Part shown: positions 5,898 to 12,439 of the stretch, piece after piece
Layout of the letters: every line of letters begins with the position of its first letter
Position numbering within the stretch: the first letter of the stretch is position 1
NCBI GenBank assembly: GCA_026770025.1
Contig: JAMXDE010000008.1
Span: 2,852,001-2,916,000 of the forward strand
Origin: Craspedostauros australis
Lineage: Eukaryota > Bacillariophyta > Bacillariophyceae > Mastogloiales > Achnanthaceae
Length of the DNA: 64,000 bases
Direction: 5' to 3'
Notes under the pieces: generated by a model
Told to the model about the DNA's origin: nothing
Seen by the model: only the letters and a program-made list of their open reading frames with translations
Databases searched by the model: none
Made by a program: the position numbers and the translations under genes

Positions 5898-6911
5898 TCA
5901 AAAGAGGACCCGTTGTGCTTGTTCTTTTCGTCTCGGTCCTTGTTGTTGTTTCGTGAGCATGTCGGACAGATTGGTTTCCGATGGTTCATGTTGGACCACC
6001 AAGATGCCCGCAGCAATGCTTTCTCTGACGAAGTGGTATGCGATGGCATTGGCTTTCTTCCGCAATTGTGATTCTGGTAGTGAGGAGTTGTATACCACAC
6101 TCTGATTGTCGACCCGTACGTCCGCCGGGCCATCCAGCGGAATGCCCATCATGCGGAGCTTGTATCTCATGCCGATGATGATCTCGGTTGCAACCTTGAG
6201 TGCTGTGAACTTGCTGCTGAATGTGGATGTCTCAATGCTGTTCTGTTTCTTGCTGTACCATAGTATCGGTGATGTATTCAAGAATAAAAGCACACCAGTG
6301 CGTGAGCGTCGCGTGACGCGGTCACCTGCATGATCAGCATCAACAAAGCACGTCATTTGAACCTCCTTTCCGCGCGGCGATGGCATGTCAGCAGGCAATT
6401 GTTCATGAGCATCAGGGTAGAAATCGTTCCAGTTGGGTTGCATCACAGGCGGTTTGTCAATGTATGCGTCGTCAAAAACAAGGCGAGAACGATCGTGAGA
6501 TTTGAGGTATGCGAACATGTGAAAGAGAGCATGTAAGTGACCAATTCATGGCGCAACACAGTACGATGCCATCATCGAGGTCTCGCAGCAAATGTCAATG
6601 CGCCCGAGTTCAACAGTCCAACGCAGTATACCAATCAGTTGTTGGTAGAATGTCATTTGTTCGGAGTCACACAATTGTGATCCATCCAATTCCGGTCGGT
6701 ACTTGTTCGGTAGGACGCTGGGTGCTTTCGTCTTGAGCCTCAGCTTGTGGTCGGTGAGATATTTTGTGACGATCTTGAGAGCGGATTTGATGTATTCTTG
6801 TGAACCCATGCTCCATTTGGGGCGTGACGGATCGGCAGTGAGGTGAAATTGTGAGATGGTCGATCCAAGATATGTTGTAGGCGGGCCAATGGAACTCGGT
6901 TTGAGGAAAAA
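5898..6911 (-). pseudogene. Copia pol, connection domain and RNase H (broken)
   Basis: This is the 3' part of the pol frame, cut from the rest by the TRIM insertion at 6912. Reading from 6911 it continues the RT with FLKPSSIGPPTTYLGSTISQ, then the GSQEYIKSALKIVTKYL helix. RNase H begins near CFVDADHAGDRVTRRSRTG, followed by the KKQNSIETSTFSSKFTALK block and VDNQSVVYNSSLPES. An in-frame TGA at 6546-6548 interrupts the conserved segment just before GHLHALFHMFAYLKSH, where related elements usually have an arginine. With the TRIM and one target copy removed, the frame joins perfectly with 7579 onward. Confidence 0.85.
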
Positions 6912-7117
6912 GTATCAGCACAAAACCGAATAGTGCTAAGTACGTTACTCCCGTAGCCCCCACTATCTATAAATTTCACTTGTGTTCGGTTCAGCAATCG
7001 CATCGCCTGTAGCTCAACGGTAGAGCACCAGTAATTCTAACTGAGGTTCCGGGTTCGAATCCCGGCATGGTACTTTGCTTTTGCTCACCCCTTGTGATTT
7101 TACGATAGTGCTCTTTC
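6912..7117 (+). repeat. TRIM left LTR
   Basis: 206 bp from GTATCAGCACAAAACC to GATAGTGCTCTTTC, identical to the right repeat. It has a TATAAA at 6968-6973, about 30 bp before the tRNA-like unit. Confidence 0.88.
7003..7072 (+). ncRNA. tRNA-like pol III unit in the TRIM left LTR
   Basis: The 70-nt sequence has an exact A box (TAGCTCAACGG, 7010-7020) and an exact B box (GGTTCGAATCC, 7052-7062). The D arm (GCTC/GAGC) and T arm (CCGGG/CCCGG) are perfect, and a T4 run at 7079-7082 could terminate pol III. The anticodon arm has a mismatch and no U at the position before the anticodon, and only four of seven acceptor pairs form. It is therefore a tRNA-derived sequence and not a working tRNA gene. 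Its resemblance is closest to a GCCTGTAGCTCA-type tRNA. Confidence 0.75.
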
Positions 7118-7367
7118 AGATTAACAGTCGCAGCTAGTTCTACATCGCTGAGTTAGGACTACCTTGCACAACACGCCTTCGTGGGCGCGTTGCGATCGCC
7201 GGATTTCGACCCAGTCTCACACTTGTCTGCTACGGCAGCACTTCCAACTTCGTCTGCACTATTAGCCGCCCAGCTTTGAGGGTGTCCCGCTGTGGGGAGA
7301 CGCGGGAGATGACAACTTTCCGTCATAGTGCTCTTGAGCAGGTGGTCCACGGTCGTAGCGTAGGGGA

Positions 7368-7573
7368 GTATCAGCACAAAACCGAATAGTGCTAAGTACG
7401 TTACTCCCGTAGCCCCCACTATCTATAAATTTCACTTGTGTTCGGTTCAGCAATCGCATCGCCTGTAGCTCAACGGTAGAGCACCAGTAATTCTAACTGA
7501 GGTTCCGGGTTCGAATCCCGGCATGGTACTTTGCTTTTGCTCACCCCTTGTGATTTTACGATAGTGCTCTTTC
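7368..7573 (+). repeat. TRIM right LTR
   Basis: 206 bp, identical to 6912-7117. It is preceded by a purine-rich tract (7361-7367) and followed by the AAAAA target copy. Confidence 0.88.
7459..7528 (+). ncRNA. tRNA-like pol III unit in the TRIM right LTR
   Basis: Identical to 7003-7072, with the same A box, B box and downstream T4. Read antisense it adds a spurious tail (MPGFEPGTSV...) to the interrupted pol frame. Confidence 0.75.
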
Positions 7574-7578
7574 AAAAA

Positions 7579-9342
7579 GTGTGAGTCAATCGCATCAAGG
7601 ATGCGTCGTGGTTGTTTGGATACAGCGAGGATATCGTCGGTGTACACGAGCACGTATTCGTAATACTCTGACCCATCGCTCGCAACAGCAGGCTTCATCC
7701 AGACGTCGCTGTCAGCACGACAGGATGTGAATCCCAACGAATCGCGCAATGTCTCTGCTAAGTGTGCTCTCCATGCTGCTCCGCTTGACTTCAGTCCATA
7801 CAGGGCTCGACAAATGATTGCGATCTTCCCCTGATCGGATCCAAACTCCGGACCGCATCGTGTGTATATGCGTTCCCGACATGGAGCATTGAGGTAAGCA
7901 TTCTGCACATCCGCGGCAAGGATATCCAGATTGTTGAGTGCGGCGATCAAGAACGCAATGCGTACGCTTTCGCGTGAAACCACACTCGCGTATGTGATCG
8001 TTGCAGGTGCTTCCGTCATGTGTCCCCCAGCGACAAGCCGCGCCTTTCTTGTGAGGTCCACCTTGACGGCGAATATCATATGGCATTCCATGTATTGGTA
8101 GCCCACGGGATCAGGAGTATTAAGTTCCTTAATATCGAACGCTGGTCGGACAGCTTTCATCTCCTTTGCAATAGCTTGTCGCCACAGATCCGTGCCTGTA
8201 GCTGCATCGATCGCAAGTGCATGACGCACTGAGGTAGGGAGCTCCACGCCAAACATCTCGTTCTTTCGGACGTGTCGTCGCTTCGTTGCCATGATGATGC
8301 GTTGTCGTTTGCGTAGGGTGTGTGGCACCCACCACTTGAATGCAGGTTCGTTGACGAGCTTGTTGTCTGCAGCGTATTCGGCAACGCGTACGGGGTCGGC
8401 TTCTTTTGCGTCGCGTAGGTGGATCCAGGATGTGGACCCGTCCTTCCATCGGATGCAAAGCTTCCAACCTTTTGTGGATTTGGAATGGGGAGAAGGAGAA
8501 GAAACAGAGGGCAAGCGTTTGTGGTCGATGATTTCGTCCATCAGCACAGTTGTGTATCCGTCGTCATCGATGCGCGCGTAGATGTTCTCCGCAATTTGAT
8601 TGGCGCTGAACACCTCATAGTGTCCATCAAGGAATTCGACTTCATATTGGGCGGTGTCAAGCATAGGGTTTGGATGAGAGTGGCCGATGAGGTTGCCTTC
8701 TGTGTCTCGTTTGCGTTGTTTGACTATTCCGTGTTGCATTTCGTCCCCTGTCGGTAGAATAACTTTGGTAGCAATGTATTTGTCGAAGGTTGCACTGTCG
8801 ACATCATCTGGCTCCACGATTGGTTCTAGTGGTTCGGTGTTCTGCAGGATGGCGATGTCTGCTGCAGTATCGTCAACATCGTTGCCGTCATCGTCGATTG
8901 TGATGCCCTCCATTCGTTGTTTCCATTTGGACCGAAGTGTGTCCATGAACTCGTTGCATTTGTATGTGATGACATCGCTATGTGTATCATCGTGAGATAG
9001 CGGCAAAACAGAGGATTTGGAAACAACAATGCCGTTGGCAGTGAGGATGTACGAGCACATGGCGTCACCAACAGAGCGACTTGGCCCAAGGTAGCGACCA
9101 AGTTGCTTGACGTTCATGGATGCGTCCTGGATGTTGATATACCACACAAAGTCAAACCAGCCGAATTCAGCAATGTGAGAGATGTCAGCCGTGTCACCGG
9201 ACAGGATGGTAGCCGGTGTTTCGCCGTGAAGATCATGGATGGCGAGTGCAGTGTGACTGCGTATCTCGGCACAGTATTCGAAGCAATAGTCCCATAGGTA
9301 CTCTGGTGTATCGGTCGAGGTCATCAGCCGCCGATAGTGACG
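7579..9342 (-). pseudogene. Copia pol: integrase C-terminal part and reverse transcriptase (interrupted)
   Basis: In the same frame as the upstream protease-integrase segment but separated from it by a single TGA (9343-9345). It begins in the integrase (RRLMTSTDTPEYLWDYCFEY), runs through an acidic linker, and contains the RT with VDLTRKARLVAGGHMTE, DVQNAYLNAPCRE, ICRALYGLKSSGAAWR and the catalytic YTDD in LVYTDDILAVS. These are standard Copia RT blocks. The frame is cut at DAIDSHF by the TRIM insertion and resumes on its other side at 6911. There is an ATG at 9324, but it lies within the conserved integrase and is unlikely to be a real start. Confidence 0.85.
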
Positions 9343-10467
9343 TCAAAGCTCACGAATGGTTGCTTCTGCTTTGTTCTGATTGTGGATGTATGCTTCGATC
9401 GGTCGGATGGAAACTTGTGCTTTGTGTAGTTTGCGGCGGAATTCGCCAGCGACAAGTTCCTTGGCATTGTCAGGGATGATGGTATGTGGGATGCCGTGGT
9501 CACGAAACAGTTCGTCGAGTGTGCGATGTGCTTCCTTGCGTTCCGCCATTGGGTACACCCGGACCCAGTGAAACGGTGTACAGTAGATCATGGCGCATTT
9601 GTTGCCACGAATCGACTTGGTCTTTGCGTGCATGGTGTCGGCGTAGAGTTGGGTGTTGAGCCGACGATATCGTAGTTGCATGGCGTAAGGATTGAGACGG
9701 CGTGTTCCTGATGAGTGACGAAAGTCGCGAATGGCCAATTGTGTTGTTGCGTCCAGGGTACGTGCAGCGGCTTCCGTTCCGATGCGCCAGCGTTGTGCGA
9801 GGACATCGGGTGTGATAGTCCCCTTTCGATTGGATGTGTGCGTGCCTTGGATGCTGATGGACGATATGGTTCGATGTGATGAGAGAGACGCTCGAATGGC
9901 GTCTTCGTCGTCCCCTGACGACCACTGGGAGGGGTCCCATGTGGCCTCTTGTGTCATCAAGATATGGATGCAGTCACGATCGGATTGGACTTCTTGTTGT
10001 GTTGGCTTTCTCATATGGAAGTATGATACAGTGCCTTGCAATCGTAGAGGGATGTGTAGGTCGTCGTCGGATGAGACCACAGAATGGTCTTCCGGTTTCC
10101 GTTCATGCTCTTTGATCATGAGCAGAGGAACATCATTCACGACTATACCCGCAGCCCTCATTTGGTTGGGACACAACAAAGGATGCTCAAGACGAGGAAA
10201 GTAGATCGATTGTGGAAAGAAAAGAATGAATGTTTGATATGTAATTGGATCATCGTATGCTATCGCAGCTGTGACGATTGGTGCATTATCGATGGACCCA
10301 AGTGAGTCAATGAAAGGAGTTGCAGTGACAGTTTGATCGGTCTGATGTACAATGTACGCAGTGTCACCAAAACAGCATGTATCTGCATGCGAATCGAGCT
10401 CTGCCCGTGGGGTATCAGATGACAGAGACATGCTGACGGATGTGAGCCGCCGAATGTGACTTTGTGG
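9343..10467 (-). pseudogene. Copia pol: aspartic protease and integrase core
   Basis: The first ATG is at 10431. The protease motif is AELDSHADTCCFGDTAYIV near the N-terminus; LDSHADT is the usual form in diatom CoDi elements. The integrase core follows the GTITPDVLAQRW region, with LNTQLYADTMHA, CAMIYCTPFHWVRVYPM and IIPDNAKELVAGEFRR supplying the expected acidic residues. The frame ends at a TGA at 9343-9345 and continues in the same frame without shift. At its 5' side it is in frame with gag across the gag TGA at 10468-10470, so gag-pol would be one polyprotein but for stops. Confidence 0.85.
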
Positions 10468-11976
10468 TCAGGAACGTCCTTGTTGGTTGCGGCGGGTGGC
10501 CATGCTGCCGATTCCGGCCTGGTTGTTGGTACCGGACGGACTGCCGCCTGGGGTGGCAGCATCGGTTGGCCCGTAATGGCCAGCTGTCTCCTCATGAGGA
10601 CGTTTCGATGGCGTGTTTTGGCCCACTGACATGACCCCACAGCGCTTGTCTCGTTCCGCATGCATCTCAAGTGCCTTGGTTTTCTGTGCGGATGACATGA
10701 CCAACCATTCGTCGGGTGAATAGTGGCGGTCAGTGATGACCATGTTCGGATCATATTTCTTGGGTTTGCCTTGGCCTCCGCGACCGCCCTTGCTTGGTGT
10801 TCCATTGCGGTTGCCACGACCGCCTTTGCTGCGATCCATCGAGCCAATGGAACGTCTGGGTGATGCGATTTGCTTGTGGTCAATGACTTTGCTGAGGACG
10901 TTAATGGCCCCGGGCAAGTCTTCACGAAGGGTTTCGTTGATCTTGATGGCAACGCATGCGCTGTCGAGACGAGAATCACGAATACCGTCGAGGAAGTGGC
11001 GCACTTTTGCCGCATTCACTAACGGTTCGCCGCATCGTGCCATGTCCTCGAATGCGCCTTTCATGATCTGTGCGTATCGTTCGAATGAGAACTGGCGTGA
11101 CTTGCCGTCATAGAAGCTGGTTGCAATTGTCTTGGATGCTGCTGCCTTGGTGCGCGCCTGAAAGGAGTCGCCGTGATAGTGCTCCTTGAGAGCAATGAAT
11201 GCTGCACGACCATTGCGTGCGCGCTCGAAGCCTTGGACCCAAGCCCATGCAGGTCCGCCGTGAGTGACATGGCGAACAACTTGCCATACTTTGGCATTGT
11301 CTGCGTCGTAGCGGATGCCTTCATGGATTGCACGATCGATCAGCTCCTCCTTCATGGTGGGCACGCCAAACCCATCATTGATGGCAGGTGTGCGGTCTTC
11401 GGGTTTACGTGAGTCCTCACGGATCACATAGGAGAGCGGAGTGTCGAGTGCGCCATGTGTATTCTCCAAGTAGTTCTGAATGTCTTTGAGGCTATCACGG
11501 ACACGGTCTACTTTGACCAGCCGTTCTGGCATGTCCATCTCGGTTTCCTTCTTAATGCGTTGTTCCTCGAGAAAGAGCTCCCATAGCGCAACGAGGCGAT
11601 CCATGGGCGCCTCTGCCGCCGTGAAAGGGCGTTGAATACGCTGGAAGTGGAATCGTGCATAGCAAAGTTGGCGCAGCTTCGTCTCGTGAACCCAACCAAC
11701 ACTTATACCTGGGTCCTTGATTTGCGGTGGTATGTTGCCTTTGGCTCCTGCCTTGTATGCGGGGTTTTCGATGAACCCGCTACCGTCACAGATGCGCTTG
11801 CACAGGGCAGTAACGCCTTTGTCGGTGATGGAGAGGAAATCGTCGAATTTGGTCAAGCCTTGATCCTCCAAAGCATCGACGATGTCATCATCAGGGAAAC
11901 TGAGTATGTTCTTGCAATAGTCACGTATCTCGTTGACGTTGGGGTTTGCTGCGGCTGACATGTTGCTAATGTTCAT
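10468..11976 (-). CDS. Copia gag (capsid-like) protein
   Basis: About 502 residues from the ATG at 11976; a further ATG at 11961 is also possible. The frame is open upstream only through a non-ATG codon. The middle holds the Copia-type capsid region (DRAIHEGIRYDADNAKVWQVV, AWAWVQGFERARNGRAAFIA, LKEHYHG, RYAQIMKGAFEDMAR). The C-terminal part is Gly/Arg/Lys-rich (SKGGRGNRNGTPSKGGRGGQ) and ends YSPDEWLVMSSAQKTKALEM, a segment typical of diatom elements. No CCHC zinc knuckle is visible; the basic Gly-rich region may replace it in nucleic-acid binding. It ends in TGA in frame with pol. Confidence 0.85.
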   Translation of the reverse strand: MNISNMSAAANPNVNEIRDYCKNILSFPDDDIVDALEDQGLTKFDDFLSITDKGVTALCKRICDGSGFIENPAYKAGAKGNIPPQIKDPGISVGWVHETKLRQLCYARFHFQRIQRPFTAAEAPMDRLVALWELFLEEQRIKKETEMDMPERLVKVDRVRDSLKDIQNYLENTHGALDTPLSYVIREDSRKPEDRTPAINDGFGVPTMKEELIDRAIHEGIRYDADNAKVWQVVRHVTHGGPAWAWVQGFERARNGRAAFIALKEHYHGDSFQARTKAAASKTIATSFYDGKSRQFSFERYAQIMKGAFEDMARCGEPLVNAAKVRHFLDGIRDSRLDSACVAIKINETLREDLPGAINVLSKVIDHKQIASPRRSIGSMDRSKGGRGNRNGTPSKGGRGGQGKPKKYDPNMVITDRHYSPDEWLVMSSAQKTKALEMHAERDKRCGVMSVGQNTPSKRPHEETAGHYGPTDAATPGGSPSGTNNQAGIGSMATRRNQQGRS

Positions 11977-12439
11977 GTATGATGTTGTTGATGAGGATGA
12001 GAGAGACGTAGTGAAGGGAGAGAGAGATTGTGTTGTCAAGAAAATCACACTGGGACATGGTGTGTTTTCGACATGAAAAGTGTTTCAACGTGTGTTTTTC
12101 ACGGTGTCAATCCACGATGAGAAGCACAAACCGGGCGATAAGGCACACGATCTTTTCGCTGATGACAGCGTGTGTCTCAGTAGGGATTTCCGTGTGACCT
12201 ACGGTCGGTGCGTCCACCAGTGTCATCAACACCTCGCAACGCGAACGGTGAGATTGCATCCCGCTGATGCCGGTCACTCTGCATCAGCACACCATGGTCA
12301 AAGAGGATGCAGCACAGTACAAGCAGTGCCGGCTTGGTGACGGTCCACCCTCGGAGCGGGGTCCCAGTATTATCGTCGCCTCTTCAGGCGGTCCCTGCAC
12401 GCTCGCACATGCCCGCATGAGCGGATGAGAATGATAAAC
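11977..12439 (-). other. Copia 5' untranslated leader
   Basis: Non-coding region between the 5' LTR and gag. The bases next to the LTR read GTTTATCATTCTCATCCGC on the minus strand; this is where a primer-binding site should be, but I cannot match it to a tRNA with confidence. Confidence 0.6.

What the first reader, a model, noticed from the sequence alone, without database searches (positions are those of the whole stretch)
6912..7573. A TRIM whose LTRs carry a complete tRNA-like pol III unit (Cassandra-like, but tRNA-derived)
Two identical 206-bp LTRs flank a 250-bp non-coding core, with AAAAA target copies whose removal restores the host Copia frame. Each LTR contains TATAAA, then 30 bp later a tRNA-like 70-mer with exact A-box and B-box consensus and a T4 terminator. 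The acceptor and anticodon arms are degenerate, so selection seems to have kept the promoter boxes rather than tRNA function. Cassandra elements in plants carry 5S rRNA promoters in their LTRs. A tRNA-type equivalent in a probable diatom would be an independent case of an LTR element adopting a pol III promoter.
Basis: partly seen in the sequence, partly recalled or inferred. Interest (0 to 1): 0.82.

Follow-up and report, generated by a model that had tools for sequence, protein, structure and literature searches.

The report
Diatom mini-retrotransposon with tRNA-like promoter
A 662-base parasite of a parasite in a probable diatom genome carries a worn tRNA gene in each of its end repeats, an arrangement described in 2024 in fungi, animals and one plant, and here it appears to borrow the machinery of local Copia retrotransposons.

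Summary
Window 6913-7574 is a real TRIM: two identical 206-bp LTRs, a 250-bp non-coding core and a 5-bp target duplication (AAAAG, not AAAAA). It is a recent multicopy family: 18 plain two-LTR copies, at least 81 LTR starts, and a tRNA-like unit in 78 of 79 LTRs read.

This is a Helenus-type family; my searches showed none from diatoms.

New detail: the core begins with a 14-nt site exactly complementary to the anticodon arm of nuclear tRNA-Asn, implying a half-tRNA primer. This site, the TAGGGGAG polypurine tract and the TATCA LTR start are shared with a Copia family whose roughly 709-bp LTR is unrelated and has no tRNA match. One TRIM (L026) holds a whole Copia joined at this site, inside a single target duplication; another TRIM LTR is joined there to a second Copia family.

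Pol III transcription is inferred, not shown. The boxes are slightly but not significantly less variable than the rest of the LTR, and most LTRs have two T-runs that should stop pol III early, so a pol II start at TATAAA remains a serious rival. New member of a known kind.

The parts
6908..6912 (.). left target-site duplication AAAAG
   Evidence: 54 of 59 loci examined have a perfect 5-bp duplication at this boundary
6913..7118 (+). 5' LTR, 206 bp, TATCAG...CTCTTTCA
6968..6973 (+). TATAAA box; present in 73 of 79 LTRs read
7003..7072 (+). tRNA-like unit (covariance-model match 7008-7067)
   Evidence: 35.4 bits, gathering 29
7010..7020 (+). A box TAGCTCAACGG (pol III internal promoter, 11-base form)
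   Evidence: consensus recalled
7052..7062 (+). B box GGTTCGAATCC
   Evidence: consensus recalled
7079..7082 (+). TTTT, first possible pol III stop; TTTGCTTTTG in 77 of 79 LTRs
7098..7101 (+). second T-run (T4 here; GTGATTTTT in 63 of 79 LTRs)
7119..7132 (+). primer-binding site GATTAACAGTCGCA, exact complement of nuclear tRNA-Asn(GUU) positions 27-40
7119..7368 (+). non-coding core, 250 bp; 21 matches in the genome, all in copies of this family
7361..7368 (+). polypurine tract TAGGGGAG, same as before the Copia 3' LTR in L026
7369..7574 (+). 3' LTR, identical to the 5' LTR; tRNA-like match at 7464-7523
7575..7579 (.). right target-site duplication AAAAG
5898..12084 (-). host: an old, broken Copia polyprotein copy (RVT_2 on 7576-8502) into whose reverse-transcriptase region the TRIM inserted

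Best explanation
It is a Helenus-type TRIM: a short non-autonomous LTR retrotransposon whose LTRs contain a decayed tRNA gene, copied by local Copia elements. Shown: structure, 5-bp duplications, recent multicopy spread, and a primer site, polypurine tract and LTR start shared with a Copia family of unrelated LTR. Inferred: (1) RNA starts about 30 bp after TATAAA, near the start of the tRNA-like unit, so that unit is about the R region; (2) pol III starts it through the A and B boxes, and some transcripts read through the T-runs of the 5' LTR and stop at the same place in the 3' LTR; (3) Copia reverse transcriptase primes it with the 5' part of tRNA-Asn cut after C40, as Drosophila copia does with half of tRNA-iMet; (4) Copia integrase inserts it. 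I put mobilisation by Copia at about 0.85 and pol III as starter of the genomic RNA at about 0.5.
For: 18 plain two-LTR copies, the window included; 16 of the 18 have identical LTRs. 81 LTR starts with up to 2 mismatches, reversed control 0. Of 59 loci examined, all 20 two-LTR loci and 34 of 37 solo LTRs have perfect 5-bp duplications. tRNA-like unit in 78 of 79 LTRs (70 match both box patterns, 8 more are seen by eye in the printout); Rfam over gathering score in 15 of 20 loci given. Primer site: 293 exact sites, tRNA-Asn genes included, reversed control 0; five tRNA-Asn genes found, two read in full. The exact site follows the LTR in 38 of 39 further 5' ends of the L026 Copia family, the 39th having one extra base; in 11 of 11 ends read of a second family; and ends TATCA, TATTA or TAACA precede all 20 further sites sampled. 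Shared polypurine tract and TATCA start, read in L026. Copia: RVT_2, E 3.6e-21. L026: a TRIM with a Copia joined at the shared site inside one TCCAG duplication. T4-T6 is a normal tRNA-gene end here: first T-run T4 in 8, T5 in 9, T6 in 3 and none within 40 bp in 3 of 23 distinct tRNA genes. Fungal Helenus: 5-bp duplications, Copia partners, anticodon-loop primer sites (PMC10886601).
Against: No transcript data. Two T-runs in most LTRs should end most pol III transcripts before the core. Lower variability of the boxes is not significant (7 of 22 against 77 of 184 sites, p 0.49); 9 of 79 LTRs miss one or both of my box patterns and 5 of 20 loci fall under Rfam's gathering score. TATAAA suits pol II equally; of 23 tRNA genes only 4 had a TATA-like word 22-42 bp upstream, two more at -43. 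Outside primer site, polypurine tract and ends, no sequence is shared with Copia, so the helper is inferred from short signals and from the L026 junction.
Confidence: 0.8

Rival explanations
1. A Copia-dependent TRIM driven by pol II from TATAAA, with the tRNA-like unit as a passenger left by an old SINE or tRNA insertion into an LTR.
For: TATAAA in 73 of 79 LTRs; two T-runs in most LTRs oppose a full-length pol III RNA; no significant conservation of the boxes.
Against: The unit still scores as a tRNA over Rfam's gathering score in 15 of 20 loci given, also in the most diverged copy L028 (30.5 bits), although its arms are broken; the boxes lie on the less variable side of the LTR; the same arrangement recurs in Helenus lineages of fungi, animals and a plant (PMC10886601).
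Confidence: 0.35
2. The TRIM is an internal-deletion product of an autonomous element with the same tRNA-like LTR, so a complete retrotransposon would run on a tRNA-like promoter.
For: L026 has an uninterrupted 1819-aa Copia frame between two TRIM LTRs; L171 has a TRIM LTR followed by primer site and Copia leader.
Against: 0 of 59 other Copia ends fetched (39 5', 20 3') match the TRIM LTR or core at E 1e-3, while a TRIM control in the same run does; in L026 the Copia keeps its own 3' LTR inside; 11 of 11 other upstream ends read of the second family (of 23 other matches) carry that family's own LTR. Both cases look like joins at the shared primer site.
Confidence: 0.05
3. The tRNA-like unit serves the RNA rather than its synthesis, for example as a fold for processing, packaging or strand transfer in the R region.
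For: D and T arms are intact in the RNA and the unit lies where R is expected.
Against: Folding energy is ordinary (z -0.10); the longest stretch complementary to the primer site is 4 bases; processing was not tested.
Confidence: 0.08
4. Chance or artefact: a SINE duplicated once, or an assembly error.
For: None found.
Against: Many copies at different sites with their own 5-bp duplications.
Confidence: 0.01

Closest known systems
Helenus (TRIMs with tRNA-like LTRs; Kojima 2024, PMC10886601), above all fungal Helenus
   Same: Two short LTRs with a tRNA-derived unit keeping A and B boxes, short non-coding core with primer site and polypurine tract, 5-bp duplications, primer site complementary to a tRNA anticodon arm (tRNA-Asn once in fungi), Copia partners without LTR similarity, many solo LTRs.
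   Different: Host is a probable diatom; 'diatom' and 'stramenopil' have 0 occurrences in that paper's main text (supplements not seen). Sequence relationship to any published Helenus was not tested, so an independent origin is possible but not shown. The L026 join to a Copia at the primer site is not described in the sections I read.
Cassandra (plants)
   Same: TRIM with a small-RNA pol III promoter in the LTR.
   Different: 5S rRNA unit (PMC10886601 passages); here a tRNA unit and no 5S match.
Drosophila copia and yeast Ty5 half-tRNA priming
   Same: Primer site complementary to the anticodon arm (as cited in PMC10886601); the primer end near position 39-40 in copia is recalled.
   Different: Ty5 uses tRNA-iMet (reference title), copia too by recall; here tRNA-Asn, with the same site in several LTR types of this genome.
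tRNA-derived SINEs
   Same: Decayed tRNA head with A and B boxes.
   Different: This element has LTRs, primer site, polypurine tract and short fixed 5-bp duplications, so it is copied by an LTR-element route.

Membership tests
Helenus / TRIMp3 | two LTRs, total length 311-1263 bp, no coding region | tested here: met
   662 bp, LTRs 206 bp, core 250 bp
Helenus / TRIMp3 | tRNA-derived sequence in the LTRs with boxes A and B | tested here: met
   70 of 79 LTRs match both of my box patterns
Helenus / TRIMp3 | primer-binding site directly after the 5' LTR and polypurine tract before the 3' LTR | tested here: met
Helenus / TRIMp3 | fixed target duplication (5 bp in fungal and plant Helenus) | tested here: met
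   54 of 59 loci perfect
Helenus / TRIMp3 | an autonomous LTR element with the same primer site but unrelated LTR exists in the genome | tested here: met
   that the TRIM depends on it is inferred
Helenus / TRIMp3 | sequence conservation of boxes A and B | tested here: inconclusive
   7 of 22 box sites vary against 77 of 184 others, p 0.49
Helenus / TRIMp3 | functional pol III promoter | not testable with these tools
   no RNA or occupancy data; also unproven for published Helenus (PMC10886601 section 4.1)
Helenus / TRIMp3 | common descent with a published Helenus lineage | not tested
Cassandra | 5S rRNA-derived unit in the LTR | tested here: not met
   Rfam finds only tRNA
SINE | target-primed insertion of an element without LTRs | tested here: not met
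   LTRs, 5-bp duplications, solo LTRs

The most novel reading that the evidence does not exclude
This is an independently arisen Helenus-like family in the stramenopiles, and its primer site is also a recombination joint: Copia cDNA circles enter TRIM copies at the shared half-tRNA primer site, giving full Copia elements enclosed in tRNA-like LTRs (L026), which could move as one unit and hand a pol III-type LTR to an autonomous element.
Probability: 0.15. Interest if true: 0.65.

Novelty: new member of a known kind. Interest (0 to 1): 0.42.

Why it matters
It extends LTR elements with tRNA-type promoters to a further major branch of eukaryotes and pairs one with a Copia family in the same genome through a shared half-tRNA primer site. 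Because 16 of 18 copies have identical LTRs, the family was active recently, so a living diatom may allow a test of the open question whether pol III really makes the genomic RNA of such elements.

Tried and rejected
My first reading of L026 was that it is the autonomous parent with the same LTR (note). Rejected: other copies of that Copia have a different LTR and L026 holds that LTR inside. The same check on L171: 11 of 11 other ends read of its family have their own LTR, and its outer flanks (GACTT left; GGTGA right) do not match, so it is a second join of unknown history. My first count of box variability placed the B box three bases too early and kept L194, whose LTR is cut after base 131; it suggested that the boxes are not less variable. 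Search for a parent tRNA: best by score among the 25 distinct tRNAs recovered was Arg-TCT, 53 identical of 73, not decisive. Search for other tRNA-like LTRs with the same primer site: 21 sites, all with this family's LTR, L026 and L171 included. The RNA fold was uninformative. Limits: the genome search scores only 40 of 115 or 135 LTR candidates, 40 of 72 Copia leaders and 40 of 381 Copia 3' parts. My 59 loci are the 38 places (window included, two pairs of rows joined), L171, L173 and 19 more of the 81 LTR starts, chosen to include diverged ones; other LTR starts were not read. L043 and L044 have the same flanks and are one event.

Full report
What is there. The window at 6913-7574 holds two identical 206-bp direct repeats around a 250-bp core, flanked by AAAAG on both sides. 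The element sits in an old Copia copy on the minus strand, in its reverse-transcriptase region (RVT_2, E 2.3e-17). The host frames on both sides are in phase once 667 bases are subtracted; the host carries other in-frame stops.

A family, not a single event. The 662-bp query finds 18 near-full copies (the window plus 17) in the 74.8-Mb genome. Partial hits add L026 and L027, two copies split by large inserts, and L028, an older copy 86% alike in its LTR that gave only one LTR. The core alone gives 21 matches, all in these copies. The first 26 LTR bases give 81 sites with up to 2 mismatches, against 0 for the reversed pattern. I examined 59 loci: 20 with two LTRs (18 plain TRIMs, L026, L027) and 39 with one (37 solo LTRs, L028, L171). 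Perfect 5-bp duplications: 54 of 59; the five others are L028, L035 (4 of 5), L171, L194 and L195. Of the 18 plain TRIMs, 16 have identical LTRs; L010 and L025 differ at 6 and 8 positions.

The tRNA-like unit. Rfam's tRNA model matches 7008-7067 at 35.4 bits (gathering 29), and the two LTRs give the only Rfam matches at gathering score in the 64-kb window. By hand, D and T arms pair fully and four of five anticodon-stem pairs form; four of seven acceptor pairs form, and position 33 is A instead of U, so it is no working tRNA, in line with ARAGORN. 78 of 79 LTRs hold the unit; in L194 the LTR is cut after base 131. 70 of 79 match both of my box patterns, 5 miss A only, 2 miss B only, 2 miss both. 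Of 20 loci given to Rfam, 15 had a hit over gathering score; L043, L186, L187, L194 and L198 had none, and L025 scored in only one of its two LTRs.

Are the boxes kept? Among 53 distinct LTR sequences (L194 left out), 4 of 11 A-box sites and 3 of 11 B-box sites vary, against 77 of 184 elsewhere (p 0.49); mean minor-letter fraction is 0.016 and 0.012 in the boxes, 0.023 in the rest of the tRNA-like unit, 0.029 in the first 55 LTR bases and 0.047 in the last 46. Of 154 slid pairs of windows with the same spacing (the true place among them), 30 have as low a mean. The direction fits a kept promoter; it is not significant, and copies drift after insertion.

Signals for reverse transcription. The core opens with GATTAACAGTCGCA, the exact complement of bases 27-40 of the nuclear tRNA-Asn(GUU) gene. 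This implies a primer made of the 5' part of tRNA-Asn, cut after C40, as recalled for Drosophila copia; anticodon-loop priming of copia and Ty5 is cited in PMC10886601. The site occurs 293 times in the genome, reversed control 0; two of the first 100 places, the only ones listed, are tRNA-Asn genes (C7, C11). I read 20 listed sites that were neither TRIM nor in my first Copia set: all are preceded by TATCA, TATTA or TAACA; two belong to the L026 Copia family, the rest fall into several other LTR-like types, whose second LTRs I did not look for. None of these 20 upstream stretches resembles the TRIM LTR, and a B box 30-60 bases before the site is found in 21 places, all with this TRIM's LTR.

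The helper. The Copia inside L026 has an uninterrupted 1819-aa frame, RVT_2 at E 3.6e-21 (the other three pieces searched gave no Pfam match), a 3' LTR of about 709 bp from TATCAACATC to TATCA after the polypurine tract TAGGGGAG, and the same primer site. The LTR start is inferred from the tract and TATCA; repetition of at least about 690 bp at the 5' ends of other copies is shown. In 39 further 5' ends the same LTR end is followed by the primer site, exact in 38. None of the 59 ends fetched (39 5', 20 3') matches the TRIM LTR or core at E 1e-3, while a TRIM control in the same run does; at E 10 the main match is the primer site itself. Rfam finds no tRNA in the Copia part of L026. TRIM and Copia therefore share the short signals that the Copia machinery reads, and nothing else that I could find.

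Two joins at the primer site. L026 reads: TRIM LTR, primer site, Copia leader and frame, Copia LTR, primer site, TRIM core, TRIM LTR, with one TCCAG duplication outside. A 20-base stretch at the primer site is present at both joints. The simplest history is that a one-LTR Copia circle recombined into a TRIM at the shared site; this is inference. The two TRIM LTRs of L026 differ only at two of the last bases (ATCA against AATA), and the left ones match the Copia end. L171 is a TRIM LTR followed by the primer site and leader of a second Copia family; of the 23 other matches to that leader I read 11 upstream ends, all with that family's own LTR. One of these follows downstream in the same contig, and the outer flanks do not match, so its history is open.

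How it probably works. TATAAA lies 35 bp before tRNA-like position 1. A start about 30 bp downstream would make the tRNA-like unit roughly the R region. This holds for pol III or pol II. For pol III: both boxes in 70 of 79 LTRs, T4-T6 as usual tRNA-gene ends in this genome (20 of 23 distinct genes), and TATAAATT also seen before two of these tRNA genes. Against: TTTGCTTTTG in 77 of 79 LTRs and then T5 in 63 of 79, so most pol III transcripts should stop inside the 5' LTR. I weigh pol III as starter of the genomic RNA at about even.

Compared with what is known. Kojima 2024 (PMC10886601; I read the abstract, the Results and Discussion in full and passages of the rest) named TRIMs with tRNA-like LTRs Helenus, in fungi, animals and Selaginella, and proposed the term TRIMp3. 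Fungal Helenus has 5-bp duplications, mostly anticodon-loop primer sites, and Copia partners without LTR similarity, as here; tRNA-Asn was used once there. The paper argues that such a TRIM should not share long LTR sequence with its helper; the present pair agrees. Novelty searches in the held library: (listings); no report of a Helenus-type element in a diatom or other stramenopile was seen there. A haptophyte study lists 240 TRIM sequences, with 0 occurrences of 'tRNA' in its main text (PMC5963040, passages). Maumus 2009 on diatom Copia elements has 0 occurrences of 'tRNA' or 'TRIM' (PMC2806351, passages).

Host. Its RuBisCO large chain (contig C90) matches five solved chains best (7yk5, 5mz2, 5n9z, 5oya, 6ftl), which I recall as diatom entries; the tool gives no organism.

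Noticed in passing
L026 (C40:417714-427166): Copia with an uninterrupted 1819-aa frame and its own 3' LTR inside a TRIM copy, joined at the shared primer site, within one TCCAG duplication.
   Followed up: yes
L171-L172, L184 (C14:1571960-1589500): TRIM LTR joined at the primer site to a second Copia family, followed by a further copy of that family; outer flanks do not match.
   Followed up: partly
293 sites in the genome: Several LTR types without similarity to each other share the same tRNA-Asn anticodon-arm primer site, suggesting a general half-tRNA-Asn priming habit of Copia elements in this host.
   Followed up: partly
last four LTR positions in all copies read: The last bases of the LTR vary strongly (TTCA, AATA, ATCA, ATTA) compared with the rest; the cause is unknown.
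   Followed up: no
L027:947-6340: A 5.4-kb insert in a TRIM core with an 851-aa frame containing a DEKWFY stretch and inverted ends by eye; looks like a DNA transposon.
   Followed up: no
C34:633062-650267: Three Copia leaders at 7,808-base spacing, looking like a tandem array with shared LTRs.
   Followed up: no
C83 and C89 of the genome: Two contigs carry the same series of tRNAs; frames beside one of them on C83 look mitochondrial by eye, so an organelle genome seems to be present twice in the assembly.
   Followed up: no
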